A DNA stretch of 64,000 nucleotides from Megasphaera vaginalis (ex Bordigoni et al. 2020). Lineage in GTDB: Bacteria; Bacillota; Negativicutes; Veillonellales; Megasphaeraceae. A model generated the notes under the pieces. The model was not told the origin of the DNA and made no database searches. It was given only the letters and a program-made list of their open reading frames with translations. The DNA lies in contig NZ_OEQB01000002.1 of NCBI RefSeq assembly GCF_900240295.1, positions 186,001 to 250,000 on the forward strand, in the 5' to 3' direction. The translations under genes were made by a program, and so were the position numbers. Below are positions 2 to 51,590 of this stretch, in pieces. The number at the start of each line of letters is the position of its first letter. Position 1 is the stretch's first letter.

Positions 2-316
2 ATGAACCGGATAGGGCAAGTCGGCATGAAGGTGGAAGAAGATCGCATTCCCTTGCTGTATCAAGCGCAGTGCCTGAAGGATGATACGATGGCGGAAACC
101 TTGTCGGCGTACGGGACGGCCCATCCGCAAGCCATCATTTATCATCTTCAAGGCGCTTTTCACGGCGAAGAAGGACTGGGCGTCATCGAGAAGCTGCACC
201 AACTGCAGCCGGCCTGGCGTCTGACGGCGATCACGGCTGTTCGCAAGGGCGAAGGCGATAATGCAGACGTATTGCAGCGTTATCGTTCTTATGGAGACTA
301 TTTGTTTATCAATTGA
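2..316 (+). CDS. ChaN-family heme/iron-associated lipoprotein, C-terminal fragment
   Basis: Only the last 104 or so residues lie in the window; the 5' end is outside. The visible part has the conserved C-terminal features of ChaN (DUF399) proteins: a YQAQCLKDDTMAE stretch followed by a beta strand and HLQGAFHGEEGLGV. Known members are outer-membrane or periplasmic lipoproteins that bind heme and are iron-regulated. Its position upstream of an exporter, a PNPOx-like protein and TonB-dependent receptors fits a role in heme handling. The lipoprotein signal cannot be checked because the start is missing. Recognition is by motif only. Confidence 0.75.
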   Translation: MNRIGQVGMKVEEDRIPLLYQAQCLKDDTMAETLSAYGTAHPQAIIYHLQGAFHGEEGLGVIEKLHQLQPAWRLTAITAVRKGEGDNADVLQRYRSYGDYLFIN

Positions 317-374
317 CGGAGGGGCTGCAAAGCAGTGTTGCAGCCTTTCTGTACACAGGAGGCGGGCAGTTGGA

Positions 375-2971: not shown

Positions 2972-3913
2972 ATGAAACACGTTGAGGAAATGAAAGGATT
3001 GCATGGCATTGGCCGTGATCATACGTTTACCATCCATGATGAAACCGGTACGGCGAAAATGCGATATTACGCTGTTCATCCCGGTATTTCTTTAATGTAT
3101 GCCGACGTGCACATGCCGGGTTTTTCGTGTGAAGGAAGGCCGATGGCAGATGTGTTCGCTATTAACCACTGTGAAGAAGGTCGGATCGAATGCAGCTTTC
3201 ATAACGGCGAATATCTGTACATGGGGCCGGGAGATATGTCTTTCGGCTGGCGGCGGAGAACGGCTTATTGCCATGAAGCCTTTTTTCCCGCTGCCCACTA
3301 TCATGGAGTATCGTTGTTGGTCTCCGTTTCGCAGGCGCAGCCTGTTTTGGATTCCCGCCTCGGCGAGGATTCGATTGATTTGCGCCTCTTTTGCTCCCGC
3401 TTTTGCGAGGAAGGGGCGGAATTTTCATTGATCATGCAGGAAAATGATGAAATTAAGCACCTTTTCTATGAATTGTATCATGTGCCGGAACGGATCAAGG
3501 CGCAGTATTATCGTTTAAAAGTATTTGAAATTTTGCTGTTTCTCAGCATTATTGATGAGCTTTCTGTAAAAAGAAATCCCGTATTTCCGAAGCAGCAGGT
3601 CGATATCGTGAAAGCCATTCAGCAGGAAATCACGCAGCATATGGCGCGGCATTTTACGGTAGAGCAACTGGCCAGAAAATATGGAATCGCCCCGTCGACA
3701 CTGAAAAAATGCTTTAAAGGCGTTTACGGATGTACGATTCCGCAATATATCAAGGAATACCGCATCGGCCAGGCGAAGAAGCAATTGATCCACACGCAAA
3801 ACAGCATTTTGGAAATTGCCAATAAGGTAGGCTACGAAAATGGCAGCAAATTTGCCGTTGCCTTCCAAAAAATAACGGGACGTCTGCCGGGAGAATTCAG
3901 ACGAAATTATTAA
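2972..3913 (+). CDS. AraC-family transcriptional regulator (PchR-like)
   Basis: 313 residues. The C-terminal 100 residues carry the paired helix-turn-helix of the AraC/XylS family: ARKYGIAPSTLKKCFKGVYG is the first recognition region, and the second ends in the family signature around VGYENGSKFAVAFQKITG. The N-terminal 200 residues would be the effector-sensing part. Iron and heme receptors are often controlled by AraC regulators of this type (PchR, AlcR), which sense the imported ligand and activate receptor genes. The gene lies directly upstream of two receptor genes. Three promoters in this locus carry the same direct repeat, which makes those boxes its likely targets. It follows the PNPOx gene by 21 bases with the RBS AAAGGGGGAG and ends in a strong terminator. 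Confidence 0.9.
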   Translation: MKHVEEMKGLHGIGRDHTFTIHDETGTAKMRYYAVHPGISLMYADVHMPGFSCEGRPMADVFAINHCEEGRIECSFHNGEYLYMGPGDMSFGWRRRTAYCHEAFFPAAHYHGVSLLVSVSQAQPVLDSRLGEDSIDLRLFCSRFCEEGAEFSLIMQENDEIKHLFYELYHVPERIKAQYYRLKVFEILLFLSIIDELSVKRNPVFPKQQVDIVKAIQQEITQHMARHFTVEQLARKYGIAPSTLKKCFKGVYGCTIPQYIKEYRIGQAKKQLIHTQNSILEIANKVGYENGSKFAVAFQKITGRLPGEFRRNY

Positions 3914-3960: not shown

Positions 3961-4021
3961 GTCCAAACGGAGCTTTTTTGAACTGAATGGAGTAGAAGGA
4001 AGCAGAACTATTTGATATAGT
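3961..4021 (+). promoter_or_regulatory. Conserved direct-repeat activator box and -10 of receptor gene 1
   Basis: The box reads CGGAGC, T-run, GAACTGAATGGAGT. Two GGAG half-sites lie about 20 bases apart in direct orientation (the second GGAG at 3989-3992). A -10 hexamer TATAGT lies at 4016-4021, exactly 27 bases after the second half-site. The same arrangement recurs at 9204 and 14248. Tandem direct repeats two helical turns apart, the nearer one overlapping the -35 position, are typical of AraC/XylS activators. Confidence 0.75.
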
Positions 4022-4040: not shown

Positions 4041-4130
4041 CTAAAGTATAGAAGCGACAGTTGAAGATCTCGGCTGTATTGCTGTAAGTACGACTGTACA
4101 AAAATGCTGGAACTGAGAAAGGATGAAGTT

Positions 4131-4790
4131 ATGAACGGGAAAACTGGTGAAAAGTCATTGCGGCAGGTGCTGCTGACAGCTGCCGTTGCAGCCTGGCTGG
4201 CGGTACCGGTCTATGCCGCCGATGTAACGACGCGAGATATACAGGTACAGGCCAACGCGGCGCAGGAAGCGGCGAAATGGGAATCACAACAGGTATCGGT
4301 GATTACGCACGAAGATATTGAGAAGAAACAGGCCAAATCCGTAGAGGATATCATTTTCGGTGAAACGGGAGTATCGCGCACTGTTGATGCCATGGGGCGA
4401 GTCGGGGTGTCAATCCGCGGCGCTGAACCGCGGCATACGTTGATCCTCGTTGACGGGCAGCCGGTTATGGGCGACTTGGCAAAATATTCGGGTGCTGCCG
4501 ATGAAGTCATGCGCCTCGGTACGGAAAATGTCGACCACATTGAGATCATTCAAGGGGCGGCCAGCGCAAAGTACGGATCTGACGCCATTGGCGGTGTAGT
4601 GAACATTGTGACGAAAAAGGCACGCGATACGGCGGGATTTCAAGTTAATGCCGAAGGATTGCGGCGTGCCGGCGATGGTGACATCACGCCGTTTCAAAAT
4701 ATTTTCTTACGGGCAGATACAGGGAAGATCGGTAATGTGCGCTTAGGTATTTTCGGAAATAAGCGGGCTATTGCCTGTTCTTGCCAGTAA
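4131..4790 (+). CDS. TonB-dependent receptor 1, N-terminal part (signal peptide and plug), ends at a frameshift
   Basis: 219 residues encoding the start of a receptor whose remainder continues in another frame from about 4771. A signal peptide (LLTAAVAAWLAVPVYA, cut before ADVTT) is followed by the plug domain, with IRGAEPRHTLILVDGQPVMG and IEIIQGAASAKYGSDAIGG as the classic plug motifs. The frame also runs back to 4104, but the ATG at 4131 has a GAAAGGATG ribosome site and starts the signal peptide. Compared with the intact paralogue at 9318, the reading frame is lost after ...FGNKR, near 4762-4771. Either the gene is broken in this strain or the sequence has an error. The downstream frame is still open for more than 1400 codons, so any lesion is recent. 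Confidence 0.85.
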   Translation: MNGKTGEKSLRQVLLTAAVAAWLAVPVYAADVTTRDIQVQANAAQEAAKWESQQVSVITHEDIEKKQAKSVEDIIFGETGVSRTVDAMGRVGVSIRGAEPRHTLILVDGQPVMGDLAKYSGAADEVMRLGTENVDHIEIIQGAASAKYGSDAIGGVVNIVTKKARDTAGFQVNAEGLRRAGDGDITPFQNIFLRADTGKIGNVRLGIFGNKRAIACSCQ

Positions 4791-7700
4791 CGGCCGCCGT
4801 AAATCCGGGCTGAGTTTTGACTACAAGGAGCGTAGTTTTGATCCGAATGTGTTGCGGTATTATGGGAATGCGTCCGATGTCGGGTTGACCGGCTCTTACG
4901 ATATTAATAAAAATAATTCTCTCGATTTTAAATTTGACAGATATACGGAAGATTTGGTTCGCGATGTCAAGCATTCCGATTCCGATTTGGAACCGCAGCA
5001 GCATTTTAAGAGAAATGCCGACAGAAATACGTTTAATTTGGCGTGGAAAGGCCGCCGCGGCAATACGGATTGGACCGTAGAAGGAAATTATACGCGAATG
5101 AAAGAAGACGATGTTGCCTTGATCAACTATTTTGGGCGGTCTGCGTATGAAGGGAAAAACGAACTTCGTTATGTCGATGACGTTGATCACCGGCAATATA
5201 ATTTACAGACGTCGTTCAATACGCAGATCAATGACAGGCATATGCTCAATTACGGCATCGGCTATTCTCATGAAGAAGGCGAAGGCAGCCGCCTGAAAAG
5301 CTCACCTCACACACGGACAAAGTACATCGATGCCTGGGACTATGATAAAAATCTGCTCGTCGATAAACTAGACCGTCTGGTTCGCAAAAAAGGCGATACG
5401 AGTACGCGGATTTATTCGCACATCCATGATTACAAATTTGACGGCAACGATGCATCGGGCATGCCGCAATGGGATATCAACTATGAATATTACGGCGAAG
5501 AAAAGGGAAATGCCAAAACGATTGCGCCGATTAAGTACGAAGACTATGAGAACTATAAATTAGGCGATAAAGGAATGAGGGAGGAGAAAACCGATTGGAG
5601 TACGGGCAAAACGAGCTGGGTAATAAAAACAGAATATGACGGTACCGTTCACATGCCGAACGGCGCTGTCGTAGCGGCTGATTCGGATATTGCCAAGCGA
5701 TATGAGGCGATGTACCATAAGTTGACGAAAGAGAACCCCGGTTATAAAGGAGGGAATATTGTCGGCGCGTATTTTGAATATGGCGAATCGTCAGATGCAA
5801 AAAAACGCGCCGAAGCACCGACATTAAACGGCAAAAAATTCCTTGAAGAATTTCGTAACCGTAATCAGCGGATTACGGTTGGCAGCGGCAAAATTACTAA
5901 GCATAACGTCTTCCTTTCCGATATGTGGCAAGTTAATCCGGATACGATCATCGTGCCGACACTTCGCTACGATCACAGCAATCTTTTCGGCAGCAATCTT
6001 TCCGGCAATTTGGGCTTGACCTATACTGTTGCCGGCAATGCACATCGACGGTTTAAAGCCAATATCGGAACTGGCTATACGGAACCGGGAATGGGCGAGC
6101 TTTGGTATAATTGGGAAATGTACGCCAGCAATCCCGTCGGAGTCGGTTATGCAAAATTAGGTTGGTATTGGGCCGGTAATCCGAACTTGAAGCCGGAAAA
6201 ATCACTGAATTTCGATATGAGTGTGGAAGGAGAAAATAAAAACACCTACGCTCGCCTAGGAATTTTCCATAACCGAATTAAAAACTATATGTCGGTGTAC
6301 TACACGGGAGCCTTGATGGACTTTGCACCGTATTTGCATGGTGATCGGAAGTATCAGCGCGCTCCCGACATGATTTACAGTTTTAAAAATATCGGCAGAG
6401 CCGAAATTACGGGGCTGGAAGCGGAAGTGCGGCAGAAATTGGGAAACCATTGGAGCGCAAAGCTCGGGTATACGTATCTGCACGCTATCAATAAGAGTGA
6501 TCCTCAAATGCCGCATCGCTTGCTGGATAAACCGATGCATAAAGTGGACATTGGCCTGACCTTTGACGATCCCGTCAGCGGCTGGGGAGCTTCAATATGG
6601 GGCGATTACTATATTCGGATGCTCGACAGCAATACGTTGGCGGACAGTGCGAATTATTGGCCCGATATTTTAGATGGTGAAGGCGCCGTCTACAATAAAC
6701 GCGTTTACCAGGAAAAGACTTTTGGGATTTGGAATCTCCTGTTCCAAAAGAAGTTTGATGAAGATTCCATCGCTTATTTCGGTGTCAATAATGTCTTCAA
6801 CCATCGCGACGACGATCGGGCGACCCAAGAACGAGTATATCGCTTCGGCGTTAACCTTAAATTGGGGTTCAGCCGGAAAGCAAAAGAAAGGGTCTTTGTA
6901 CCGAAAGATAAGGCCGGCAAGGCTAACGTGGCGCCGGTCTTGCTGCAAGGGTTCTTGGATCGTCCCTTTGATACGGAAAAAGAGCGCGGCGCGGAACTAA
7001 TGGGAGAGTATCGTGCCCGTTGGAAGGTTCATGACGGTACGAACCGGCCTCAATCGAGATACCGTGCCGATACCTACGTCGGTACGGCAGCGGCAAATAT
7101 GAAGGATCAAGGCGAACACGGTTTTGAACAGCGGGTTCGCCTTGGCGTTGACGCTCGTCTCAGTGAAAATACGAACCTTACCGTCGTCGGCAGTGCTTCC
7201 GGAGAAAGCGGTGTCGATACGTCTTACGAAACGGAAAGCGCTAAAGGCATTAAGCATCGCCGTCTCGATCGTGTTGATCTTACGCAGCGGGCGCATAAAT
7301 GGGACTTTTCCATAGGTCGCCTGACGGAACCGATGGGGGTAACGGGATATTGGTTCGGCAAGGAATTTGACGGTGCTCGGGCTGTCTGGACAGGCAAAGA
7401 GACACAGATCCGCCTTGGTTACGGTACGTTTACCCACAGTACCGGCATTCCTGATTCGGCGTATACGCACGCTGTCCATGCGACCTTCTTCCGACCTCCT
7501 ACTATTATGGAATTAGTTGGTATTGATAAAGATGAAATGCCATATGCCGTGCAAAAAGGTACGACGCTGGATAAAACCTATGAGACGGCATATAAGGGGA
7601 AAACGGATTCCCTGTTCTTCCTCCAGCAATTGCGGGATGTTTGCGAAGATCCCAAGGCTACGGAAGCGGATAAGTTGGCCGTACTTCAACGGATGCAACG

Positions 7701-9093
7701 TATTGTTAAACAAGCATATGGAGAAGACCTTTCTCAACAAAGCTTTGCGTTGCGGACTCCTGCATCTGGGTACGTGTTATATAAAATCAGAAATAAAAAG
7801 ACGCATGAAGAAAAGCTGCAAAAAGTAGACTTGTATTACAGCAATAGAATTGATGCTTGGGACAGTGATGAAATAAAGGCCTTGAAAAAAGAAGTCAACA
7901 AAGATGTCTCCATTACTTTAAGCAATGAAAATGCACTGCGCGGACGGAATTATATCGAGGCCAATAAAGATACGTTATTAGCGGCCTATTCAAAAATCGC
8001 AAAGGTTTATGCGACGTCCAATTGGAACGGTAAGACTGATGACGAGTTAGGTTCCTCGTACACGTATGTGAAATATAACGGTAGAGACAAGGCCGGTGTT
8101 TTATATCAAAGTGATGCAAGCAAACGTGAAGATTACGAGTTTGCCGGGGTAGATGCTATTGTCACCATTGACAGTTATCATTCCGTACCGGGATATGATT
8201 CCAGCAATGTCATTACGCCGATTGATCTTTTAGATGGGTTATATAAGGCCAATTACGTTGATACGAACAGCGATCCGCAATACGGTTGGGCAATGCCGCA
8301 CCTTATGTTCGAATTTTTCAATCGGATGGAAACGGTATTGGAAGCCACTGAAAGCGGAAATCGCTTACCCCGTGAATCCATTGGCAAGATTGTCGGCAAT
8401 CTGATTAAAACGGAAGGGACAATGCTGGAACGGGATCGGATTCCGGAGCTGGATAAGGCGATATTTGTACAGGCCAAGCATGAAATTACACCGCGGCTTG
8501 GCGTACAGGCCTGGTACTTGCGCTCAATAGGCGATGATATCCATACGTTCCTCAACGCGAACGGTAAAAATAATGAACGTCATCGTTTCGACTCGTTGGC
8601 AAATGTCATCGGTATCGGTGCAAAATACCAAATTGGTGCCAATACTTCGATTTCCTTTGACTATGGACAGAATAGAACTGATTTTGGCCGGTATATGAAT
8701 GGCCGGAGTATGTACAGGCATGAACGCGGCACGGCAGACTTTGATCTGTGCGGCCATGAAAATGGCGGTATTCCGCATTTTTGGACGGCGCGCCTCGACA
8801 TCGGCCAAACCGATACGAATGTCGCCGGCAGCTGGAATGCCTTCGTCGACTACAAGTACTTCCAACACGGCTCCTTCTTCGGAGGCAACGGAACCGAAGC
8901 CTTACCGGATCGGTACCTGGACGGCATCAGCAGCTTTACCTTCGGCGGTGGTTATGTTCCGGCAAAGAATTTCCTGCTGGAAGCGTTCTATACCTTTGAC
9001 GCTAAAGGCATTAACCGTCGTGACACGCTTTACGGTCCGGAAAATTTCCGACTCGGAAACTATACGCGGCTGCAAATGACTTATAAATTTTAA
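4771..9093 (+). CDS. TonB-dependent receptor 1, remainder: receptor barrel fused to a second porin-like barrel
   Basis: 1440 residues continuing receptor 1 after the frameshift; the TTG at 4771 is probably not a real start. Residues 1-700 match the 22-strand barrel of a TonB-dependent receptor, with the NPNLKPEKS motif and a final strand ending in ERVYRFGVNLKLGF, the usual C-terminal signature of such barrels. The protein does not stop there. After a short linker, about 720 more residues form what looks like another outer-membrane barrel: alternating-hydrophobic strands, GFEQRVRLGVDARL, GRLTEPMGVTGYWFG, and a terminal strand TRLQMTYKF ending in Phe. About 317 residues (908-1225) interrupt this second barrel. 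The paralogue at 9318 has the same plan. Total length about 1,660 residues against about 700 for an ordinary receptor. Confidence 0.85.
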   Translation: MPVLASNGRRKSGLSFDYKERSFDPNVLRYYGNASDVGLTGSYDINKNNSLDFKFDRYTEDLVRDVKHSDSDLEPQQHFKRNADRNTFNLAWKGRRGNTDWTVEGNYTRMKEDDVALINYFGRSAYEGKNELRYVDDVDHRQYNLQTSFNTQINDRHMLNYGIGYSHEEGEGSRLKSSPHTRTKYIDAWDYDKNLLVDKLDRLVRKKGDTSTRIYSHIHDYKFDGNDASGMPQWDINYEYYGEEKGNAKTIAPIKYEDYENYKLGDKGMREEKTDWSTGKTSWVIKTEYDGTVHMPNGAVVAADSDIAKRYEAMYHKLTKENPGYKGGNIVGAYFEYGESSDAKKRAEAPTLNGKKFLEEFRNRNQRITVGSGKITKHNVFLSDMWQVNPDTIIVPTLRYDHSNLFGSNLSGNLGLTYTVAGNAHRRFKANIGTGYTEPGMGELWYNWEMYASNPVGVGYAKLGWYWAGNPNLKPEKSLNFDMSVEGENKNTYARLGIFHNRIKNYMSVYYTGALMDFAPYLHGDRKYQRAPDMIYSFKNIGRAEITGLEAEVRQKLGNHWSAKLGYTYLHAINKSDPQMPHRLLDKPMHKVDIGLTFDDPVSGWGASIWGDYYIRMLDSNTLADSANYWPDILDGEGAVYNKRVYQEKTFGIWNLLFQKKFDEDSIAYFGVNNVFNHRDDDRATQERVYRFGVNLKLGFSRKAKERVFVPKDKAGKANVAPVLLQGFLDRPFDTEKERGAELMGEYRARWKVHDGTNRPQSRYRADTYVGTAAANMKDQGEHGFEQRVRLGVDARLSENTNLTVVGSASGESGVDTSYETESAKGIKHRRLDRVDLTQRAHKWDFSIGRLTEPMGVTGYWFGKEFDGARAVWTGKETQIRLGYGTFTHSTGIPDSAYTHAVHATFFRPPTIMELVGIDKDEMPYAVQKGTTLDKTYETAYKGKTDSLFFLQQLRDVCEDPKATEADKLAVLQRMQRIVKQAYGEDLSQQSFALRTPASGYVLYKIRNKKTHEEKLQKVDLYYSNRIDAWDSDEIKALKKEVNKDVSITLSNENALRGRNYIEANKDTLLAAYSKIAKVYATSNWNGKTDDELGSSYTYVKYNGRDKAGVLYQSDASKREDYEFAGVDAIVTIDSYHSVPGYDSSNVITPIDLLDGLYKANYVDTNSDPQYGWAMPHLMFEFFNRMETVLEATESGNRLPRESIGKIVGNLIKTEGTMLERDRIPELDKAIFVQAKHEITPRLGVQAWYLRSIGDDIHTFLNANGKNNERHRFDSLANVIGIGAKYQIGANTSISFDYGQNRTDFGRYMNGRSMYRHERGTADFDLCGHENGGIPHFWTARLDIGQTDTNVAGSWNAFVDYKYFQHGSFFGGNGTEALPDRYLDGISSFTFGGGYVPAKNFLLEAFYTFDAKGINRRDTLYGPENFRLGNYTRLQMTYKF

Positions 9094-9098
9094 TAATA

Positions 9099-9172: not shown

Positions 9173-9203
9173 TCTGTTTTTTTAGTAAAAAAGGCAAGTC
9201 GGT

Positions 9204-9264: not shown

Positions 9265-9275
9265 ACAATTATATT

Positions 9276-9295
9276 GATAAATGATAATAAAAATC
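9276..9295 (+). promoter_or_regulatory. Candidate Fur box upstream of receptor gene 2
   Basis: GATAAATGATAATAAAAATC resembles the Fur consensus with one extra base, in a very AT-rich stretch just after the -10. The composition makes chance matches easier, so this is weaker than the candidate at 4025. Confidence 0.4.
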
Positions 9296-9317
9296 AAAAG
9301 AATGAAAGGAGCAACAA

Positions 9318-12300
9318 ATGAGGAACCGATACGGCATAGCCCGGAAACAAACGGCGCTTTTCTGTGCCGTCTTACTGTGGATGTCGCTGCCTGTCTACGG
9401 GGCAGATGGGCCGACGGAGAGTGCCGGCGTTACGACGCGCGATATCCAGGTGCGGGCGGACGCGGCGAAGGAAGCGGCCAAGTACGAGTCGCAGAGCACG
9501 ACGATCATCACGAAGGAAGATATAGCAAAGAAGCAGGCGAAATCGGTAGAAGACATCATCTTCAATGAAACCGGAATGAATCGCGCTGTGGATGCCATGG
9601 GGCGCGTTACTGTTTCGATCCGCGGCGCCGAACCGCGGCACACGCTCATTCTCGTTGACGGGCAGCCCGTCATGGGCGACTTTGCCAAATACAGCGGCCA
9701 AGGCGATGAGCTGCAACGGCTGGGAACGGAAAATGTGGAACGCATCGAAATCATCCGCGGCGCCGCCTCGGCCAAGTACGGCGCCGACGCTATCGGCGGC
9801 GTCGTCAACGTTATTACGCGCAAACCGGCAAAATCGGCGGGAATGCAGGTCAATGTCGAAGGACGGCGTGTCCGCGGTGACGGCGATTTGTTGCCGTATC
9901 CGAGTTTTTTCCTTCGCGCCGATTCCGGCCAGATCGGTAAAATGCGTTTTACCGCTTATGGCGGCAAGCGAGACGTCATGCCTGTTTATAGTGCGGCTCT
10001 TTTTCACGGCGGCATGAATACAACAGAGCCGATTCGCAATTCGTTGCGATATTACGGCGCTATTAAAAATATCGGCGTACTGGCAACGTATGACATTGAT
10101 GCCAGAAACAAGATCGACGTCGGCATAGACCGGGCGAATGAAGAGATGGAACGATTTGTCAAGCATTCTGACGACAGCCCGGATCCCGTAGTCAACTATA
10201 GGCGAAAGGTAAACCGTAATACTTACCGTATCGGCTATGCAGGAAACGACGGCGGCAAGACGGATTGGCAGATCGATGCGGATTATGCCAAGATGAGAGA
10301 GCATGATATTACCTTGTCTTCCGTTGCGGCGTATTCCTCCTATGAAGGAAAGAATTCTTTGGAATATCTGGATAACATTATACATAAGCAATGGAATATA
10401 AAAGCAAGCGCAAATACGCAAATTAATGACGCGCATTTGCTGACCTATGGATTCGGGTACAGCAGGGAAAATGGCGAAGGCAGCCGATTGAAAAGTGCAA
10501 GGAATATCAAAACTCAACATATTGATCCTTGGGATTACGATAAAAATCTGCATAGTGATAAAGGTGTCGGCGCGCCGCAATCTCATGTTTACGATTATGC
10601 CATGTATCTGGATGAAAAAGGCATTCCCCAGTATGATCAAGCATATGAGTTGTATGGCTATAAAAATGAAGCCGGCAAGTCTGTGGTACCGGCCTATACT
10701 TATCAGGATTATGTCGATAATGTGGATGACGAAGAACGCATTGCCGCCTTTTCCCGTCAGCTGCGCGAAGAGAACCCGTCCTTGCAGGTGGAAGACGAAT
10801 GGGGAGAAATACCTGATGACGATATCGTCATGCGCAGGTATTATGATGCGAAAACGTTGAAGTGGCACGGCAAGACGTTTCAGGAAGAATCGGCCAATCG
10901 CTGTAACCGCCAAACGATTGGACAAGCGGAAATCAGCAAACAACATTTCTTCGTTCAAGATACGTGGCAAATCAATAAGGATACGTTGGTGACTCCTGTA
11001 TTACGATTGGATCACAGCAGTCTCTTCGGTTCGAATGTGAGTTTTAATGTGGGACTTACGCATGCTCTTGGCGGATCTTCCACACAACGGGTTAAGGCTA
11101 ATATCGGCACCGGGTATACGGAACCGGGAATGGGAGAATTATACTATAATTGGGAAATGTATGCCGGTATGCCTTATGACCTGGGAATAGGAAAGTTAGG
11201 ATATTACTGGTTTGGCAATCCGAACTTAAAACCGGAGAAGTCATTTAATTTCGACCTTGGCTTTGAAGCGGAAAAGGGTAAGACCGCAACGCGGGTAAAT
11301 GTGTTCCATAATCGTATTAAGGATTATATGACCACCTATTTTACAGGAAAACTTATGAATTTCTATCCCGATGCGGGTGTAAACACGTGGATCACACCGC
11401 CGGACATGATCTACAGCTTCAAAAATATAGGAAAAGCTGAAATTACGGGGCTGGAAGCGGAATTATCCCATCAATTCAATGATCATTGGTCCGGGAAATT
11501 GGGCTATACATATTTGCATGCCGTCAATAAAAGTGATCCGGATATGCCCGATCAATTGCTGAATAAACCGCAGCATAAGTTTGATATAGGTGTTACCTAT
11601 GATAATCGGAAAACCGGCTGGCGAGTTTCTTTGTGGGGTGATTATTACATTCATATGTTGGACAGCAACACGATTGCCAATAATGGGAATTATGTCCATA
11701 ATGACATCGGTGATGGGCAACCGGTGTATACATTTGCGGAAAAGGGGAAGCAAACCTACCAGAAAAAAACATTCGGCATATGGAATCTCCTGATTCAAAA
11801 GAGGTTTGATAAAGATGCGATTGCTTATGCGGGAATAGACAATCTCTTTAATCATCGTGATGATGATCAGGCAACGCAGGAACGGGTATATAAATTCGGT
11901 GTAAATATGAAATTCGGAGCTGCGGTGCAACCTGCCGAGAAAAAGGCTGCGGCCCCGAACGTTGCGAAGATATTCACACATAGCGAGCCGTGGTTTATTC
12001 ATGTGCCGTTTGACTTGCAGAAACCGAAAGGTGTCGCATTGATTGGTGACTATCGGTTGCGTTGGAATGCCTTTGGCGGTAAACAAAAGCCGGCAGACGC
12101 CCGGGTTACGGCTGTGTCCAGCGTCGGGTCGGCGTATAAGAATTATCTGGAAAAAGCTGGGCACGGCTTTGAACAGCGTTTTCGACTTGGGCTTGATGCC
12201 CGAATCGGCCGGTATACGAATATCACGCTGTTAGGCGGTGCTTCTGGCATAAGCGGCGTCGATACGGCGCAGGACATTGCCGGATCCAGAGGCTTGGGCC

Positions 12301-14066
12301 GGCAGCGCCTTGAAGCGGTTGACCTCATGCAACATGTGCGTAAATGGGATTTTTCTCTTGGCCGTTTAACGGAACCGATGGGTGTTACCGGCTATTGGTT
12401 CGGAAAGACATTTGACGGCGTCCGCGCTATATGGACGAGTGGAAAGAATCAGGTGCGTTTGGGCTATGGCGATTTTAGCGCTAGTACGGGGATCAACGAT
12501 TCGGCGTACACGCATGCTGTAACGAAGATTTTTATGCGTCCGCCGACTAAACATGAATGGTTGGGGCAGGACCAACCGGAAAATTATGCGCTTCACGGTG
12601 AATACAGCGACATGACGATACGGACACCGGGGTTTGAAAGCCTGTATCAGAAGTTGGTGAAAGCAGGCTCCTTGGAGGAAGAAAAGAAAATTATTGATAC
12701 CTACATGGCCGTTATCAAGAAAGATAAGCCCGGCTTGTATGAAAAACTGAGCAAGCGCAGCGGTCAGTATTATATGAATAGCTATATCTGGAGAAAGGTT
12801 ACGGTAAAAGACGCGGCCGGCAAGATTGTCAAAGAAGTTATTACTACGGATGTACCGGTCGTATATGTCAAAAATACAACTTTCGATAAAGCGAAGATTC
12901 AGCAAGACGGAGAAGAAACATGGCGGCGTCTGATGGCGATGACCGGTGAAAACGGAGAAGAGTGGGATGACTATATTCAAGATTCGTCTTTAGTACGCGA
13001 AGGCGCATATCATATAACTTCTGAATTTTACGGCTACGGCATATATACGGGCAAGGAAGTATTGGAAGACCTCGGTGCAGACCACAAAGGAAAACGATAC
13101 GCAGGGCTTCCTGTGAATAAGTTGAAAGCCGGAGATATTCAGCCGCTGACGCAGGCAGAAGCTAAAAACAGAGCGTCGTCTTCGTTGTGGAACAGAGATA
13201 CGGCGTGGATGACGGTGTATAAAAAATTGCCTAATGGTAATGGTATTCAAGGCTATAAGGCGGCTCCTATCTCCCCGATCGCTAAGCGCGTGCTTTTCTG
13301 GTTGGCAGGGGATATGTGGAAGCCGGAAGATGACAGTACGCTGCCGTTGCACTTATTAGAAAAAGAAGGGTATTTGATCGCGCAGATGGGAACCGTTCTG
13401 GTACAGGATCAGCTTCCGGCACTTGATCGGGCCTTCTTCGTCCAGGCCAAGCACGAAATTACGCCGAACTTCGGCGTAGCCGCCTGGTACCTGCGCTCCG
13501 TAGGGGACGATAAGCACACTTATGCGGCGGCTCACGGCGACGGCAACGACCTGGCATCTTTCGACACGTTGGCCAATGTCATCGGCATCGGCGCCAAGTA
13601 CCGCTTTGGGAAGCAGGCGTCCGTATCCTTCGATTACGGCCAGAACCGTACTGACTTCGGCCGGTACATGAACGGCCATACGGTGTACGTTCATCAGGCG
13701 GGAACGTCGGGCTTTACGATGGGCGGCAGAACGGGCGGCGGGACGCCGCACTTCTGGACGGTACGATTCGACATCGGCCGGGCCGACACGGACAAGCCGG
13801 GAAGCTGGAACGCCTTTGCCGACTACAAATACTTCCAGCACGGGTCTTTCTTCGGGGGGAACGGAACGGAAGGCGTACCGGACCGGTACCTGGACGGCAT
13901 GTGCAGTTTCACGCTCGGAGCGGGCTACGTACCGGCCAGGAATTTCCTGCTGGAAGCGTTTTATACCTTTGACGCCAAAGGCATCGGCAAGCGGGATACG
14001 CTCTACGGCAGTGAAAACTTCACGCTCGGCGATTACACGCGCATTCAGGCGACGTACAGATTCTGA
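9318..14066 (+). CDS. TonB-dependent receptor 2 fused to a second porin-like outer-membrane barrel
   Basis: 1582 residues, intact. Signal peptide (ALFCAVLLWMSLPVYGA), then the plug (about 60-190; IRGAEPRHTLILVDGQPVMG, IEIIRGAASAKYGADAIGG), then a receptor barrel ending near residue 866 with ERVYKFGVNMKFGA. From about 880 to 1582 there is a second domain with its own outer-membrane features: GFEQRFRLGLDARIG, FSLGRLTEPMGVTGYWFG, YGQNRTDFGRYMNG, FADYKYFQHGSFFGGNGTE, and a last strand TRIQATYRF ending in Phe. Residues 1072-1365 are an insert unlike the one in receptor 1. The receptor part should import a metal chelate or heme using TonB energy. The second barrel could be a porin or a docking and release partner (inference). 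The ATG has the RBS AAAGGAG. Its own activator box and -10 lie upstream. Confidence 0.9.
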   Translation: MRNRYGIARKQTALFCAVLLWMSLPVYGADGPTESAGVTTRDIQVRADAAKEAAKYESQSTTIITKEDIAKKQAKSVEDIIFNETGMNRAVDAMGRVTVSIRGAEPRHTLILVDGQPVMGDFAKYSGQGDELQRLGTENVERIEIIRGAASAKYGADAIGGVVNVITRKPAKSAGMQVNVEGRRVRGDGDLLPYPSFFLRADSGQIGKMRFTAYGGKRDVMPVYSAALFHGGMNTTEPIRNSLRYYGAIKNIGVLATYDIDARNKIDVGIDRANEEMERFVKHSDDSPDPVVNYRRKVNRNTYRIGYAGNDGGKTDWQIDADYAKMREHDITLSSVAAYSSYEGKNSLEYLDNIIHKQWNIKASANTQINDAHLLTYGFGYSRENGEGSRLKSARNIKTQHIDPWDYDKNLHSDKGVGAPQSHVYDYAMYLDEKGIPQYDQAYELYGYKNEAGKSVVPAYTYQDYVDNVDDEERIAAFSRQLREENPSLQVEDEWGEIPDDDIVMRRYYDAKTLKWHGKTFQEESANRCNRQTIGQAEISKQHFFVQDTWQINKDTLVTPVLRLDHSSLFGSNVSFNVGLTHALGGSSTQRVKANIGTGYTEPGMGELYYNWEMYAGMPYDLGIGKLGYYWFGNPNLKPEKSFNFDLGFEAEKGKTATRVNVFHNRIKDYMTTYFTGKLMNFYPDAGVNTWITPPDMIYSFKNIGKAEITGLEAELSHQFNDHWSGKLGYTYLHAVNKSDPDMPDQLLNKPQHKFDIGVTYDNRKTGWRVSLWGDYYIHMLDSNTIANNGNYVHNDIGDGQPVYTFAEKGKQTYQKKTFGIWNLLIQKRFDKDAIAYAGIDNLFNHRDDDQATQERVYKFGVNMKFGAAVQPAEKKAAAPNVAKIFTHSEPWFIHVPFDLQKPKGVALIGDYRLRWNAFGGKQKPADARVTAVSSVGSAYKNYLEKAGHGFEQRFRLGLDARIGRYTNITLLGGASGISGVDTAQDIAGSRGLGRQRLEAVDLMQHVRKWDFSLGRLTEPMGVTGYWFGKTFDGVRAIWTSGKNQVRLGYGDFSASTGINDSAYTHAVTKIFMRPPTKHEWLGQDQPENYALHGEYSDMTIRTPGFESLYQKLVKAGSLEEEKKIIDTYMAVIKKDKPGLYEKLSKRSGQYYMNSYIWRKVTVKDAAGKIVKEVITTDVPVVYVKNTTFDKAKIQQDGEETWRRLMAMTGENGEEWDDYIQDSSLVREGAYHITSEFYGYGIYTGKEVLEDLGADHKGKRYAGLPVNKLKAGDIQPLTQAEAKNRASSSLWNRDTAWMTVYKKLPNGNGIQGYKAAPISPIAKRVLFWLAGDMWKPEDDSTLPLHLLEKEGYLIAQMGTVLVQDQLPALDRAFFVQAKHEITPNFGVAAWYLRSVGDDKHTYAAAHGDGNDLASFDTLANVIGIGAKYRFGKQASVSFDYGQNRTDFGRYMNGHTVYVHQAGTSGFTMGGRTGGGTPHFWTVRFDIGRADTDKPGSWNAFADYKYFQHGSFFGGNGTEGVPDRYLDGMCSFTLGAGYVPARNFLLEAFYTFDAKGIGKRDTLYGSENFTLGDYTRIQATYRF

Positions 14067-14247: not shown

Positions 14248-14308
14248 GTCCAAATGGAGCTTTTTAGAACTGATTGGAGTAGACAGGATGGAAATACTTT
14301 GTTAATAT
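14248..14308 (+). promoter_or_regulatory. Conserved direct-repeat activator box and -10 of the exbB-exbD-tonB operon
   Basis: Third copy of the box: AATGGAGC, T-run, AGAACTGATTGGAGT, with the second GGAG at 14276-14279. The hexamer TAATAT at 14303-14308 lies at the same 27-base offset as in the two receptor promoters. A moderate Fur-like stretch (about 14316-14335) follows. The box links energy supply and receptors in one regulon. Confidence 0.75.
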
Positions 14309-14449: not shown

Positions 14450-15079
14450 ATGGAAGGATTTTCGTATTGTATTCATTTGTTTCACAGCGGCGGTATCGTT
14501 ATGTATCCGCTCTTGCTCTTGTCCGTCATCACGGTGGCAATTGCAGTGGAACGGGGATTTTATTATCAGACGAACCGCAGCGGCTCGAAGAAGTTTTTTC
14601 ACGGCGTTTATCACGCTGCCAAAACCGATAATTGGTCGGCGGCGGAGCAGCTTTGCAAGGAGTTTCCGACGTCCATCAGCCGAATTATTGCGGCAGGTTT
14701 GGCAAATGATGCTTCGGAGATAGCGATGAAGGATGCGTTTGCCGAAACGATGGCGGCTGAAGCTGTCGGCTTCCGCCGTTATCTCGATTACCTCAGCGCT
14801 ATCGTTACCATTGCGCCGCTTCTGGGACTGCTCGGTACGGTAACAGGAATGATCAATACTTTCAGCGTGCTGGATAACGGCGCCGGCGCCATGGCCATGA
14901 CGGGCGGTGTCGGCGAAGCGCTGGTCGCTACGGCAACCGGGCTTTGTGTCGCGATCATCGCGTTTTGCGTGTATACCTATTTCAGTCATCAGCTGGACAC
15001 GATCATTAGCGATACGGAAAGTCTCTGCGTTTCCGTTTTGAACGGAAAAATGAAAAAGTGGGGGAAGGACAATGTTTAA
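14450..15079 (+). CDS. exbB: ExbB-type proton channel subunit of the TonB system
   Basis: 209 residues of the MotA/TolQ/ExbB family. A membrane helix near residues 15-35 is followed by a cytoplasmic stretch and then two more helices around AIVTIAPLLGLLGTVTGMI and ALVATATGLCVAIIAF, which hold the family's conserved channel motifs. With ExbD it forms the inner-membrane proton-driven motor that energises TonB. It is the first gene of an operon that overlaps exbD by 8 bases, has the RBS AGGAGAG, and is preceded by the same activator box as the receptor genes. Confidence 0.93.
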   Translation: MEGFSYCIHLFHSGGIVMYPLLLLSVITVAIAVERGFYYQTNRSGSKKFFHGVYHAAKTDNWSAAEQLCKEFPTSISRIIAAGLANDASEIAMKDAFAETMAAEAVGFRRYLDYLSAIVTIAPLLGLLGTVTGMINTFSVLDNGAGAMAMTGGVGEALVATATGLCVAIIAFCVYTYFSHQLDTIISDTESLCVSVLNGKMKKWGKDNV

Positions 15080-15476
15080 TCGCCATCGGATGAAGAGGAA
15101 GCCGCAATTTATGATCATTCCCATGATCGATATCATTTTCTTTCTTCTCGTCTTTTTTATGATGAACAGCTTGCAGACGGTGGCGCAGAAAGCCTTGTCC
15201 GTACAGCTGCCGCAGGCACAGAGCGCTTCGGCGCCGGCGCAGCTGCCGATTATTCTGACGTTGGATGCCGAAGGGCACATTACAGTTGATAATAAACCGG
15301 TCAGCTTGCATGAAGCGGATCAGATCATGAAGCAGCATATGTCGGAAAACAATCATGCTTCCGTTATTTTGCAGGCTGATAAGCGTACGGCGCACGGACA
15401 GGTCGTCGCCGTCATGGATATGTTGAAGGGAGCCGGGGTTAAGCGGCTGGCCATTGCTGCAGAGCAGAAAGGATAG
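15072..15476 (+). CDS. exbD: ExbD-type subunit of the TonB motor
   Basis: 134 residues. A short cytoplasmic start is followed by one membrane helix (MIPMIDIIFFLLVFFMM) containing the conserved aspartate in MIDIIFFLLVFF that carries protons in the ExbD/TolR family. A periplasmic domain follows, ending in QVVAVMDMLKGAGVKRLAIA. The start overlaps the end of exbB, which implies translational coupling. It ends 4 bases before tonB. Confidence 0.93.
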   Translation: MFNRHRMKRKPQFMIIPMIDIIFFLLVFFMMNSLQTVAQKALSVQLPQAQSASAPAQLPIILTLDAEGHITVDNKPVSLHEADQIMKQHMSENNHASVILQADKRTAHGQVVAVMDMLKGAGVKRLAIAAEQKG

Positions 15477-15480
15477 GAAT

Positions 15481-16242
15481 GTGAAGAATTTATCATGGAT
15501 GAAGGCCTATACTGCTTCCGTGATTCTTCATCTCCTGTTGATCGGCATCGGTGTTGTTGTTTTTTCCGGTACGGTGATGGAAAAGGAGCAGCTGTATGTC
15601 ATTGATTTGCAGACTGGCGAGGTAATCAGTCAGGGCAGCGGCCATGCCGGCGGCGGTGGCGGCAGCGCCGTCGATTTCCCGGAACCGCTGAAAGCGGAGG
15701 ATGTGGAAAAACGTTTGGCCGAAGTGGAAAAGACGCAGCCTGTTGCGCCGTCTCCGGCACCGCCGGCGGTGCCGGAGACGGCGACCGGTTCACAGCAAAC
15801 GCCGGCTGCCTCTGAAGCGCACGGAGAGGGTAGCGGCGCCGGCAGTGGAGAGGGCAGCGGCTTGGGTGCCGGTCAGGGCAACGGCAGTGGAGACGGCCAG
15901 GGGTACGGAGAAGGCAGCGGCAGCGGACAGGGGAGCGGTGACGGCAATGTTTCCGGAACCGGTACGCAACCTTTTGACGTGGAAGGATTCTGGGGCGCTG
16001 TTAACGGCAATAAGCAATATCCACCAATGGCTATCAAACGTCATTTGGAGGGAACCGTCATAATTATGACGACACTGGACGGCGGGGGGAACTGCCTCGG
16101 TGTTTCTGTCGCCGCGTCTTCGGGGCACGATATCCTCGATAATGCGGCTGTCAAGGCCGCATACGCGGCGTGCCCGTTTCCAAATGCGAGCGGCAGAACC
16201 GTTACAGTTCAGACGTCGGTTCATTTCGGACTTAATGAGTAA
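15481..16242 (+). CDS. tonB: TonB energy transducer with an unusual Gly/Ser-rich periplasmic linker
   Basis: 253 residues from a GTG at 15481 (RBS AAAGGATAGG). An N-terminal membrane anchor (VILHLLLIGIGVVVFSG) is followed by a short Pro-rich stretch (about 82-100) and then about 50 residues (112-162) almost wholly Gly, Ser and acidic/Gln, built from GSG[E/D/Q]G-like units. The C-terminal TonB domain follows, with YPPMAIKRHLEGTV as its signature and a final strand VQTSVHFGL. Classical TonB spans the periplasm with a rigid Pro-Lys/Glu linker, so a flexible Gly-rich one is notable. It should contact the two adjacent receptors. Confidence 0.9.
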   Translation: MKNLSWMKAYTASVILHLLLIGIGVVVFSGTVMEKEQLYVIDLQTGEVISQGSGHAGGGGGSAVDFPEPLKAEDVEKRLAEVEKTQPVAPSPAPPAVPETATGSQQTPAASEAHGEGSGAGSGEGSGLGAGQGNGSGDGQGYGEGSGSGQGSGDGNVSGTGTQPFDVEGFWGAVNGNKQYPPMAIKRHLEGTVIIMTTLDGGGNCLGVSVAASSGHDILDNAAVKAAYAACPFPNASGRTVTVQTSVHFGLNE

Positions 16243-16293
16243 GGTGTGAAATAAGGCAGTTATCATATTAACGGTATAAAGGAGAGGATATAT

Positions 16294-16815
16294 TTGAAAA
16301 CGGTTGTCTTGTACTCATCACGCACTGGGAATACGAAAAAGGTGGCTGAAGCGATCGCTTCCGTCTTGCCGGCGGGCACTCCCTGCTTGCCGGTCGGCGA
16401 AGCGCCGGCTGATCTGGAAGAATACGATTGCGTATTCCTCGGCTTCTGGGTAGATCGCGGTACTGTCAATGAGGAAGCGAAAAACGTTTTATCCGGGTTG
16501 CAGAATAAGCATGTTGCTGTTTTTGCGACACTCGGCGCACCGCCTGATTCGGTGCATGCCCTGACTGCATTGGACAATGCGGCGGCGTTGCTGCCGTCGG
16601 GAAAGGCGCCGGCCGGTCGGTTTATTTGCCAAGGAGCCGTTGATCCCAAGCTGATTGAAATGATGTATCAGAAGTTTCCTGCCGGTTCTCCCCATGGCAA
16701 GAGTCCCGAACGGGACGCCATGCATGCCGAGGCGGCAAAACATCCGAATGAAGAGGATTTTGCCAAGGCCAAAGCCTTTGCAGCAGAGGTGTTGAAAGGA
16801 GTGGCAGAGGCATAG
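16294..16815 (+). CDS. Flavodoxin-family protein, likely electron donor to the adjacent radical SAM enzyme
   Basis: 173 residues from a TTG at 16294 with a strong RBS (AAAGGAGAGG). It starts with the flavodoxin phosphate loop YSSRTGNTKKVAEAI and continues with the flavin-binding region around FLGFWVDRGTV and FATLGAPPDS. Flavodoxins supply the electron that ChuW/HutW-type radical SAM enzymes need. The stop codon is followed with no gap by the start of such an enzyme, which implies coupled translation. Use as its dedicated donor is inference from this arrangement. Confidence 0.85.
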   Translation: MKTVVLYSSRTGNTKKVAEAIASVLPAGTPCLPVGEAPADLEEYDCVFLGFWVDRGTVNEEAKNVLSGLQNKHVAVFATLGAPPDSVHALTALDNAAALLPSGKAPAGRFICQGAVDPKLIEMMYQKFPAGSPHGKSPERDAMHAEAAKHPNEEDFAKAKAFAAEVLKGVAEA

Positions 16816-18381
16816 ATGTTGTTACAGGAGTTATATGACAGGCAGTCGCCGGCAGAACGGGCGTTTCTGTTCGGCTGTGAAGGCGTTGATGCGTTGACGG
16901 CGGCCTTCCCGCACAAACGAGTCGTTCACGCCGGTTTGGAAGGAACTGTCGTGGCGCCTGCTGAGGCCCAGCAGATATGGAAAGGACTGTTGGCGCAGCC
17001 GCCGCAGTCGCAGCCTACGCAGTCCGCTTATATTCATATTCCTTTTTGCAAAACAAAGTGCCTGTATTGCGGTTTTTTTCAAAATGGCGAAAATCAGCAG
17101 GCTGAAAACCGATACATAGATTGCCTCTTGGAAGATATCAGAAGGGATGCGGCGCAACCCCGGTTGCGCGACAGTCTGATTCATTCCGTCTTTATCGGCG
17201 GCGGCACGCCGACGAGTTTATCCGTTCCTAACGTCAAACGTCTGCTGCAGGCAATTCGCGCGTATTTGCCGTTGGCTAATGATTATGAGCTGACCTTGGA
17301 GGGACGAATTCATGATCTGGTACCTGAAAAGATGGAAGTTTGGCTGGCAAACGGTGTAAACCGTATCTCTCTCGGCGTACAGTCTTTTCATACGGCAGTG
17401 CGTCGTAATGTCGGCCGTCTTGATGATACGGAAACGGTTTTGAAACGGCTGGCCGCCTTGAAAGCCTATAACCAATGCGTTGTCGTGATCGATCTGATCT
17501 ATGGGCTGCCGGGGCAGTCGATGGCGGTTTGGCAAGAGGATCTGCGCATTTTATCTGCCTATGATATTGACGGCGCCGATTTATATCAGCTCAATGTTTT
17601 TGAAGACAGCGATCTGCAAAGACGAATTGCCGACGGGACCTTGCCGCCGGCGGCGACGACGGCAGAGCAGGCCGAAATGTTTGCCTTTGCCAGGGATTAT
17701 TTGAAAAAACGCAATTACAGACGTGTCAATATTTGTCATTGGAGCAATACGAACCGCGAAAGAAGTCTCTATAACTCACTGACACGACAAGGCGTACCGA
17801 TGTTCCCGTTCGGCAGTGGCGCCGGCGGCAACCTTGACGGCTACAGTACGATGCTGCACCGGGCTTTGGAGCCGTACGAAATGGCGGTGGATCAGGGAGA
17901 AAAGCCGTTTATGGCGCTGCTGAAGCAATCGGCGCAACAGCCTTTGGTTAATGCGTTGCTGAAACAGTTGGAGCAGCGGTATATTGACCTCCGGCAGCTG
18001 GTTTCCTATCAGGAGCGGCTGAAGGAGTTGAAATGGCTCTTCGATTTGTGGCAGGAACGGGGCTTATTGCGCGATAACGGTGTTTGTTACGAACTGACCG
18101 AAGCCGGTGAATTCTGGCAGGTCAACATTGCCCAATCTACGTTAGAGTGTATGGAATATTTAGTAACGGGAAAGAAACAGCTCCAGATGCAAGGAGTGGC
18201 AGCGCAGGATACGGGAAAGCAAGGGCGTATTGACGCCAAGGCCGAGGCGATCGTAAAGGTCATGAAAGAAATGAAGGAAAATGGCGGCAGCCGTATGGCG
18301 GCTATGCAGGAGATGGCGGAAGCCATGCGGTCCATGACGGCAGAGGAAATGCAGGCTGTCATGAAGCGGATGCGGCCGTAA
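16816..18381 (+). CDS. ChuW/HutW-type radical SAM enzyme for anaerobic heme degradation
   Basis: 521 residues. The cluster motif is CKTKCLYC (Cys78, Cys82, Cys85), the CX3CX2C pattern of radical SAM enzymes, followed by FIGGGTPTSL and NRISLGVQSFHT as in the HemN-like group. The WLANGVNRISLGVQ and GRLDDTETVLKRL regions and the C-terminal layout match ChuW/HutW rather than HemN. Known ChuW opens the heme ring without oxygen, releasing iron and a methylated tetrapyrrole (anaerobilin). It is the last gene of the TonB/flavodoxin run and ends in a terminator. The last 60 residues form an extra Met- and charge-rich helical tail (AAMQEMAEAMRSMTAEEMQ) of unknown use. Confidence 0.87.
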   Translation: MLLQELYDRQSPAERAFLFGCEGVDALTAAFPHKRVVHAGLEGTVVAPAEAQQIWKGLLAQPPQSQPTQSAYIHIPFCKTKCLYCGFFQNGENQQAENRYIDCLLEDIRRDAAQPRLRDSLIHSVFIGGGTPTSLSVPNVKRLLQAIRAYLPLANDYELTLEGRIHDLVPEKMEVWLANGVNRISLGVQSFHTAVRRNVGRLDDTETVLKRLAALKAYNQCVVVIDLIYGLPGQSMAVWQEDLRILSAYDIDGADLYQLNVFEDSDLQRRIADGTLPPAATTAEQAEMFAFARDYLKKRNYRRVNICHWSNTNRERSLYNSLTRQGVPMFPFGSGAGGNLDGYSTMLHRALEPYEMAVDQGEKPFMALLKQSAQQPLVNALLKQLEQRYIDLRQLVSYQERLKELKWLFDLWQERGLLRDNGVCYELTEAGEFWQVNIAQSTLECMEYLVTGKKQLQMQGVAAQDTGKQGRIDAKAEAIVKVMKEMKENGGSRMAAMQEMAEAMRSMTAEEMQAVMKRMRP

Positions 18382-51580: not shown

Positions 51581-51590
51581 TACTTAGTGA

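What the first reader, a model, noticed from the sequence alone, without database searches (positions are those of the whole stretch)
14450..18381. Complete anaerobic heme import-and-cleavage module in one run
ExbB-ExbD-TonB, a flavodoxin and a ChuW/HutW-like radical SAM gene follow two receptors, an AraC regulator, a PNPOx-like gene and a ChaN gene. The flavodoxin stop directly abuts the radical SAM start, which suggests a matched electron donor/enzyme pair. No heme ABC importer is visible, so the inner-membrane step is missing from the window.
Basis: partly seen in the sequence, partly recalled or inferred. Interest (0 to 1): 0.65.

Follow-up and report, generated by a model that had tools for sequence, protein, structure and literature searches.

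The report
Two-barrel receptors in anaerobic heme locus
This stretch carries a complete oxygen-free heme-iron scavenging system of a known type, but its two outer-membrane receptors are unusual giants in which a TonB-driven transporter is fused to a second, porin-like barrel that is predicted to hold up a folded surface domain, and a shared DNA switch appears to tie the receptors to the heme-cutting genes.

Summary
ExbB-ExbD-TonB-flavodoxin-HutW lie at 14450-18381, and the radical SAM protein is a true ChuW/HutW (485.8 bits, cut-off 400; 17-row HutW clade supported 100/99, apart from HemN, HemW and HemZ). The "missing" importer (binding protein, permease, ATPase, a 728-aa receptor, full ChaN) lies just upstream of the window. 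The flavodoxin is better read as HmuF/FldH (heme carrier and anaerobilin reductase) than as an electron donor: its only PDB sequence match is heme-bound FldH and the heme-ligand His is conserved. So the pathway is a known kind (hmuTRUVWF).

What is new lies in the "two receptors" (4104-14066): TonB-dependent receptors fused to an OmpM-type porin barrel (AlphaFold pLDDT 84.7; OmpM1 Z 27.5). Its predicted extracellular loop carries a confidently modelled 315-aa domain (pLDDT 92.6) without a convincing PDB match. Giants occur in 42 of 380 class genomes; 41 of these have HutW. A 36-bp AraC-type direct-repeat operator occurs three times in the genome: before giant 1, giant 2 and exbB, each with a -10-like hexamer at identical spacing. 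Variants mark the same genes across the genus and in Veillonella. Ligand and regulation are inferred, not shown.

The parts
2..316 (+). 3' part of ChaN-like heme-binding protein (whole gene in L005 15402-16316)
   Evidence: Pfam Cofac_haem_bdg 1.9e-50 on the whole gene
261..2099 (+). MsbA-like ABC half-exporter; found between ChaN and the later hmu genes in several relatives; role unknown
   Evidence: ABC_membrane 6.5e-40, ABC_tran 8e-32; below every NCBIfam cut-off shown; conserved place
2156..2950 (+). PNPOx-like split-barrel protein with extra N-terminal about 120 aa
   Evidence: PNPOx_N 6.2e-8; weak flavodoxin resemblance of the N-part (probability 25.5)
2972..3913 (+). AraC-family regulator, candidate activator of the three operators
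   Evidence: HTH_18 3.2e-22; present in 10 of 10 HutW-positive and 0 of 7 HutW-negative genomes of the family
3961..3996 (+). operator 1 (direct repeat), -10-like TATAGT at 4016-4021
4104..9093 (+). giant receptor 1, interrupted: frames 4104-4790 and 4771-9093; TonB-dependent receptor plus OmpM-type barrel
   Evidence: uninterrupted relative in L042
9204..9239 (+). operator 2, -10-like TATAAT at 9259-9264
9318..11918 (+). giant receptor 2 (1582 aa), N-terminal TonB-dependent receptor part: plug and barrel
   Evidence: Plug 9.5e-23, TonB_dep_Rec_b-barrel 9.6e-37; best heme-family model TIGR01786 148.5 bits, below its cut-off 323.75
11919..14066 (+). giant receptor 2, C-terminal OmpM-type porin barrel
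   Evidence: AlphaFold2 pLDDT 84.7, pTM 0.73; OmpM1 8bym Z 27.5, rmsd 2.8, 284 aligned; 34 of 36 relatives match Porin_5
12489..13433 (+). folded domain in predicted extracellular loop 4 of that barrel (315 aa)
   Evidence: pLDDT 92.6, pTM 0.87; no PDB match at E <= 0.001, best VIA Z 3.1
14248..14283 (+). operator 3, -10-like TAATAT at 14303-14308
14450..15079 (+). ExbB
15072..15476 (+). ExbD
15481..16242 (+). TonB (GTG start assumed)
   Evidence: TonB_C 1.8e-12
16294..16815 (+). HmuF/FldH-type heme-binding flavodoxin
   Evidence: only PDB match 8g64 E 1.5e-21; axial-His column conserved in 13 of 13 HmuF-type rows
16816..18381 (+). HutW/ChuW/HmuW radical SAM heme-opening methyltransferase with Met-rich C-terminal tail
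   Evidence: TIGR04107 485.8 bits, cut-off 400; tree

Best explanation
This is an HmuF-HmuW anaerobic heme-iron system of a diderm Firmicute of the Megasphaera group. Inferred route: heme or hemoprotein is met at the surface by the 728-aa receptor and by the two giant receptors. In the giants, the loop-4 domain standing on an OmpM-type porin barrel would catch the ligand next to the TonB-driven transporter of the same chain, a one-chain counterpart of capture lipoprotein plus transporter pairs. ExbB-ExbD-TonB powers uptake; the upstream binding protein, permease and ATPase carry heme inward; the HmuF-type flavodoxin binds heme and passes it to HutW, which opens the ring and frees iron; HmuF then reduces the product. 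The AraC-type protein is proposed to switch on giant 1, giant 2 and exbB-exbD-tonB-hmuF-hutW through a shared 36-bp direct-repeat operator. Shown here: gene identities, domain fusion, predicted folds, operator distribution and co-occurrence. Inferred: ligand, capture role, regulator-operator pairing, direction of regulation, catalysis.
For: HutW over its equivalog cut-off and in the HutW clade. HmuF: sole PDB hit is FldH, ligand His conserved, characterised system in PMC10404700. Importer upstream. Giants: Pfam, model and OmpM1 match, Porin_5 in 34 of 36, sequence match to an SLH-bearing OmpM-like protein. Association: 41 of 42 giant-bearing genomes have HutW, against 109 of 380 overall; in 17 of the 42 a giant lies within 20 kb of HutW, in four families. 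In the V. parvula record (L099) the order is AraC-giant-giant-ExbB-ExbD-TonB-flavodoxin-HutW, as in the window. Operator: 3 sites in 2.2 Mb, reversed control 0; genus-wide 48 sites in 9 of 61 order genomes, all 9 with HutW and AraC, control 0; 27 of the 30 sites examined (of 48) precede giant, exbB, hmuT, hmuF-hutW or another receptor gene; a Veillonella form has 14 sites in 10 of 61, control 0.
Against: No heme-receptor model passes its cut-off on the giants, and between the stretches GYTEP and NPNLKPE they lack the His that the 728-aa receptor has there (the motif rule is recalled), so their ligand may not be heme. In 25 of 42 genomes no giant was found within 20 kb of HutW (some contigs are short). 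68 of 109 HutW genomes lack giants, so giants are optional. FldH Lys92 is not conserved in the flavodoxin. Giant 1 is interrupted here. Statistics on co-occurrence ignore phylogeny. The two barrels were not folded together (length limit), and the loop-4 topology is read from DSSP plus sequence. Genome G014 has HutW and the AraC protein but no operator match within three mismatches.
Confidence: 0.7

Rival explanations
1. The giants transport something other than heme (for example another metal chelate or cobalamin) and lie in the heme locus only as part of a general iron-starvation regulon.
For: They pass no heme-receptor cut-off, lack the His found in the 728-aa receptor, and 25 of 42 giant-bearing genomes have no giant found within 20 kb of HutW. 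M. cerevisiae records hold many copies without hmu genes nearby.
Against: 41 of 42 giant genomes have HutW; the order with HmuF-HutW is kept between the window and Veillonella records; the operator is shared with hmuT, exbB and hmuF-hutW.
Confidence: 0.3
2. The C-terminal barrel is a working pore, not a stand for a capture domain: it lets small molecules (or cleaved tetrapyrrole) cross beside the transporter.
For: The fold is that of OmpM, which the OmpM paper calls a nutrient uptake channel (PMC10628300, title and passages).
Against: Loop 4 is a confidently predicted 315-aa domain, far longer than the corresponding stretch of the OmpM-size relatives printed; whether the lumen is open was not tested.
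Confidence: 0.2
3. The flavodoxin is the reductase that feeds electrons to the HutW iron-sulfur cluster.
For: Gene abutment and flavodoxin fold.
Against: Its closest solved relative is FldH, which does not stabilise a semiquinone and acts in heme trafficking and anaerobilin reduction; the published assays added a separate flavodoxin, FnFld (PMC10404700, abstract and passages). The heme-ligand His is conserved.
Confidence: 0.12

Closest known systems
hmuTRUVWF of Fusobacterium nucleatum (HmuW, HmuF, FldH)
   Same: Binding protein, receptor, permease, ATPase, radical SAM methyltransferase and heme-binding flavodoxin with conserved ligand His; Veillonella already named as carrier of similar operons (PMC10404700 section 4).
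   Different: Here ExbB-ExbD-TonB, two giant fused receptors, AraC, PNPOx-like protein, MsbA-like exporter and a shared operator are added; flavodoxin precedes HutW; HutW has a Met-rich tail; FldH Lys92 not conserved.
hutWXZ / chu systems of Vibrio, Rahnella, Cereibacter and relatives
   Same: Orthologous HutW; TonB-ExbB-ExbD and binding protein beside it in Vibrio sp. HDW18.
   Different: Vibrio and Cereibacter records have HutX, Vibrio also HutZ; here an HmuF-type flavodoxin and a long PNPOx-like protein with only 25% identity to HutZ over 100 aa.
OmpM of Veillonella parvula
   Same: C-terminal barrel: Z 27.5, rmsd 2.8 over 284 residues.
   Different: No SLH domain found in giant 2; fused behind a TonB-dependent receptor; large loop-4 domain.
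Multibarrel outer-membrane proteins (Solan et al. 2021; GfcD)
   Same: Two barrels in one chain.
   Different: Solan et al. is not held and is known here only as a cited reference plus recall; whether it lists this combination is unknown. GfcD joins a 12- and a 13-stranded barrel (PMC11494523 passage), not a TonB-dependent receptor and an OmpM barrel.
TbpA/TbpB or HpuA/HpuB-type transporter plus surface capture protein (recalled)
   Same: Proposed working principle: surface capture next to a TonB-dependent transporter.
   Different: Here both parts would be one chain and the capture part stands on a barrel; ligand untested.

Membership tests
ChuW/HutW (TIGR04107) | score over the equivalog cut-off | tested here: met
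   485.8 bits, cut-off 400
ChuW/HutW (TIGR04107) | CX3CX2C radical SAM motif | tested here: met
   CKTKCLYC in the printed sequence
ChuW/HutW (TIGR04107) | groups with named HutW, not HemN/HemW | tested here: met
   17-row HutW clade 100/99; E. coli HemN is a very long branch
ChuW/HutW (TIGR04107) | opens heme without oxygen | not testable with these tools
   needs enzyme assay
HmuF/FldH | closest solved relative is FldH | tested here: met
   8g64 E 1.5e-21, sole hit at E <= 0.001
HmuF/FldH | axial heme ligand His (FldH His134) | tested here: met
   aligned in the window protein and in 13 of 13 HmuF-type rows
HmuF/FldH | Lys92 ion pair to heme propionate | tested here: not met
   other residues in that column; residue role from PMC10404700. 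Not shown to be a defining feature of HmuF itself; I call the protein HmuF-like
BilS flavodoxin (NF045594) | score over the cut-off | tested here: not met
   111.2 bits, cut-off 155
TonB-dependent receptor | plug and beta-barrel domains | tested here: met
   Pfam Plug and barrel models over cut-off on giant 2; strand number not tested
Heme/hemoglobin receptor (TIGR01785/TIGR01786) | score over the cut-off | tested here: not met
   giant 2: 121.9 (cut-off 316.85) and 148.5 (cut-off 323.75); the 728-aa receptor also below (188 and 167.4)
OmpM | 16-strand porin barrel | tested here: met
   Z 27.5 to OmpM1; strand number read from DSSP and sequence
OmpM | SLH peptidoglycan-binding domain | tested here: not met
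   no SLH hit in giant 2, SLH found in OmpM-size relatives
AraC-type activator with direct-repeat site | AraC HTH domain | tested here: met
   HTH_18 3.2e-22
AraC-type activator with direct-repeat site | binds the operator | not testable with these tools
   only co-occurrence tested
HutZ/HugZ heme-binding split barrel | clear homology to HutZ over the whole protein | tested here: inconclusive
   25% over 100 aa, E 6e-5 in a pairwise test

The most novel reading that the evidence does not exclude
A family of one-chain, two-barrel TonB-dependent receptors of diderm Firmicutes, in which an OmpM-derived porin barrel presents a surface capture domain of unseen fold beside the transporter, used for heme or hemoprotein piracy and switched with the anaerobic heme-cutting enzyme by a dedicated AraC regulator and operator.
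Probability: 0.45. Interest if true: 0.78.

Novelty: new variant of a known kind. Interest (0 to 1): 0.6.

Why it matters
The enzyme pathway is known, but the receptors would add a form of outer-membrane uptake in which capture and transport stand on two barrels of one chain. That raises direct questions: how the assembly machinery folds two barrels with an inner and an end signal, whether the OmpM part trimerises, and what the loop-4 domain binds. The operator gives a ready list of genes to test in Veillonella parvula, a common human commensal with laboratory strains, and would let the heme regulon of these bacteria be mapped.

Tried and rejected
Rejected: HemN/HemW reading of the radical SAM gene. 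'Importer absent'. Chance for the operator: 0 of 100 shuffles reached 3 matches and reversed controls were 0.

Led nowhere or weak: the PNPOx N-terminal part as a degenerate flavodoxin (hhalign probability 25.5, E 7.5e-4); PDB sequence search with the C-terminal barrel profile (one hit at E 0.79, taken as chance); fold search with the loop-4 model (no match at E <= 0.001; best Z 3.1 among 996 chains), which does not prove a new fold because only Foldseek's candidates were aligned. Rfam found only a tRNA and a TPP riboswitch in the window, away from the module. Paper searches for a fused TonB-dependent receptor and porin or for these systems listed no paper whose title or abstract start describes these giants; the library lacks most subscription journals and Solan et al. 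is not held. My first HutW tree was wrong because rows on minus strands were read on the wrong strand; it was replaced and is not used.

Counts: 55 of 380 genomes matched at E <= 1e-6; I count 42 with best E <= 1e-50 as giants and set aside 13 weak ones. One of the 42 (G359) has only a short piece. Of three weakly matching places that I read further (G002, G007, G350), all hold OmpM-size proteins; for two of them, G350 and G007, an SLH domain was found by Pfam. HutW counts use E <= 1e-100 (109 of 380; 106 over the cut-off). Of 48 operator sites 30 were examined; 3 of the 30 were unresolved: one at a contig end, one with only a weak distant match, one with none. One of the 27 counted (L139) has hmuT only 954 bases downstream. 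The lists for one search were copied by hand from the outputs.
Full report
Observation. ExbB (14450-15079), ExbD (15072-15476), TonB (about 15481-16242), a flavodoxin (16294-16815) and a radical SAM protein (16816-18381) follow each other on the plus strand; the flavodoxin stop codon is directly followed by the ATG of the next gene. AraC, PNPOx-like and receptor genes lie upstream, and the end of a ChaN gene starts the window.

The missing importer. The window is bases 186001-250000 of contig 2 of a 2.2 Mb genome. Just upstream, in L005, lie two binding-protein genes (one short), a FecCD permease, an ABC ATPase, a 728-aa TonB-dependent receptor and the whole ChaN gene. The arrangement recurs in relatives: binding protein, permease, ATPase and 728-aa-type receptor lie in one stretch with HutW in L036, L040, L042, L043 and L044, 5 of the 9 stretches taken; L037 has only the binding protein and a 35% receptor near HutW, and L038, L039 and L041 show none of the permease or ATPase genes in the stretch taken.

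The enzyme. The protein scores 485.8 bits with TIGR04107 (cut-off 400), far above HemW (160.6, cut-off 205.4) or HemN (137, cut-off 324.95). In a tree of 35 rows, 17 HutW rows, three of them annotated as HutW in their records (Vibrio, Rahnella, Cereibacter), form one group (100/99); HemW and HemZ form others. E. coli HemN is a very long branch whose place is unsure. HutW over the cut-off is in 10 of 17 genomes of the family and 106 of 380 of the class. HutW of Megasphaera-group and Veillonella genomes carries a Met-rich C-terminal tail that the three proteobacterial rows lack.

The flavodoxin. Its only PDB sequence match at E <= 0.001 is 8g64, FldH of Fusobacterium nucleatum (the entry is listed only as 'Flavodoxin', the link to FldH rests on its sequence numbering and the paper). 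FldH binds heme through His134, and HmuF and FldH carry heme to HmuW and reduce anaerobilin by hydride transfer without a stable semiquinone (PMC10404700; abstract, section 4 and passages read). The ligand His column is kept in 13 of 13 HmuF-type rows, while a shorter upstream paralogue lacks this cap; Lys92 of FldH is not kept. The pair is therefore better read as heme carrier and reductase plus ring-opening enzyme. The same paper reports similar operons in Veillonella, so the pathway as such is not new.

The receptors. Giant 2 (9318-14066) is one open frame of 1582 aa: plug and TonB-dependent barrel, then a further 700 aa. Giant 1 has the same make-up but is interrupted near 4771-4790; a relative in L042 is uninterrupted. 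A model of the last 715 aa, built with 36 sequences, has pLDDT 84.7 and pTM 0.73. Its best structural matches are the three entries of OmpM1 of Veillonella parvula (Z 27.3-27.5, rmsd 2.8-2.9, 284-286 aligned), the next being classical porins at Z 21.4 (Foldseek agrees). 34 of 36 members match Pfam Porin_5, and the sequence matches an SLH-bearing OmpM-size protein. Giant 2 itself has no SLH hit. Reading DSSP with the sequence gives 16 strands and places residues 187-501 of the domain in extracellular loop 4; this topology is inferred. The loop domain alone is predicted at pLDDT 92.6 and pTM 0.87, varies strongly between relatives, and has no PDB match at E <= 0.001 or above Z 3.1.

Spread and association. 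The C-terminal domain is strong (E <= 1e-50) in 42 of 380 class genomes; the 39 loci of the named collection are all from Negativicutes by their titles. 41 of the 42 have HutW, against 109 of 380 overall (Fisher p 3e-24, phylogeny ignored). Within the genus 7 of 10 HutW genomes and 0 of 5 others have giants (p 0.026). In 17 of 42 a giant lies within 20 kb of HutW, in four families. In the V. parvula SKV38 record the order AraC-giant-giant-ExbB-ExbD-TonB-flavodoxin-HutW equals that of the window. The V. parvula outer-membrane proteome lists several 'TonB family' proteins in outer-membrane and surface fractions (PMC5491611, passages); I could not map them to the giants.

The operator. A 36-bp element is found three times in the genome, before giant 1 (3961), giant 2 (9204) and exbB (14248); reversed control 0. 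In each case a -10-like hexamer starts at the 20th base after the element: TATAGT, TATAAT, TAATAT. A genus pattern with up to three mismatches gives 48 sites in 9 of 61 order genomes, control 0. Of the 30 sites looked at, 15 precede giants or giant-like receptors, 6 exbB, 3 hmuT (one at 954 bases), 2 another receptor, 1 hmuF-hutW, 3 unresolved. The AraC homologue is present in exactly the 10 HutW genomes of the 17-genome family, and in the order 35 of 36 AraC genomes have HutW while 5 HutW genomes lack it. Veillonella has a related element, 14 sites in 10 of 61 genomes, control 0; by coordinates each lies before a giant. The two half-sites about 20-21 bases apart, the near one ending just upstream of the -10, fit an AraC-type activator site; that is inference.

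Mechanism and limits. The likely route is given under Best explanation. Against a heme ligand for the giants stand the missed heme-receptor cut-offs and the lack of the His seen in the 728-aa receptor between the corresponding stretches (rule recalled).

Verdict. The finding as stated is correct and mostly ordinary: a new member of a known pathway. The fused receptors, their unplaced surface domain and the shared operator make it a new variant worth a test.

Noticed in passing
window 4771-4790: Giant receptor 1 is interrupted by a frame change; broken giant copies are also frequent in Megasphaera cerevisiae, Colibacter massiliensis and Selenomonas sp. F0473 records, so decay or on/off variation is possible.
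   Followed up: partly
window 18180-18378: Met-rich C-terminal tail of HutW, shared by Megasphaera-group and Veillonella HutW and absent from the Vibrio, Rahnella and Cereibacter rows.
   Followed up: partly
window 261-2099: MsbA-like ABC half-exporter kept near ChaN, AraC and HutW in several relatives; could export heme or cleaved tetrapyrrole.
   Followed up: no
window 2156-2950: PNPOx-like protein with an N-terminal part that weakly resembles a flavodoxin; homologues stand between TonB and giants in L083, L097 and L106.
   Followed up: partly
L005 8448-8900: Second, shorter flavodoxin of the same family without the heme-binding cap.
   Followed up: partly
L005 9031-9900: Extra binding-protein gene that ends early compared with its neighbour.
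   Followed up: no
L188 680-3920: Tandem OmpM-size proteins of another family with short inserts at a place like loop 4, a possible forerunner of the giant loop domain.
   Followed up: no
window 51486-51588: TPP riboswitch (Rfam RF00059, 57.3 bits).
   Followed up: no
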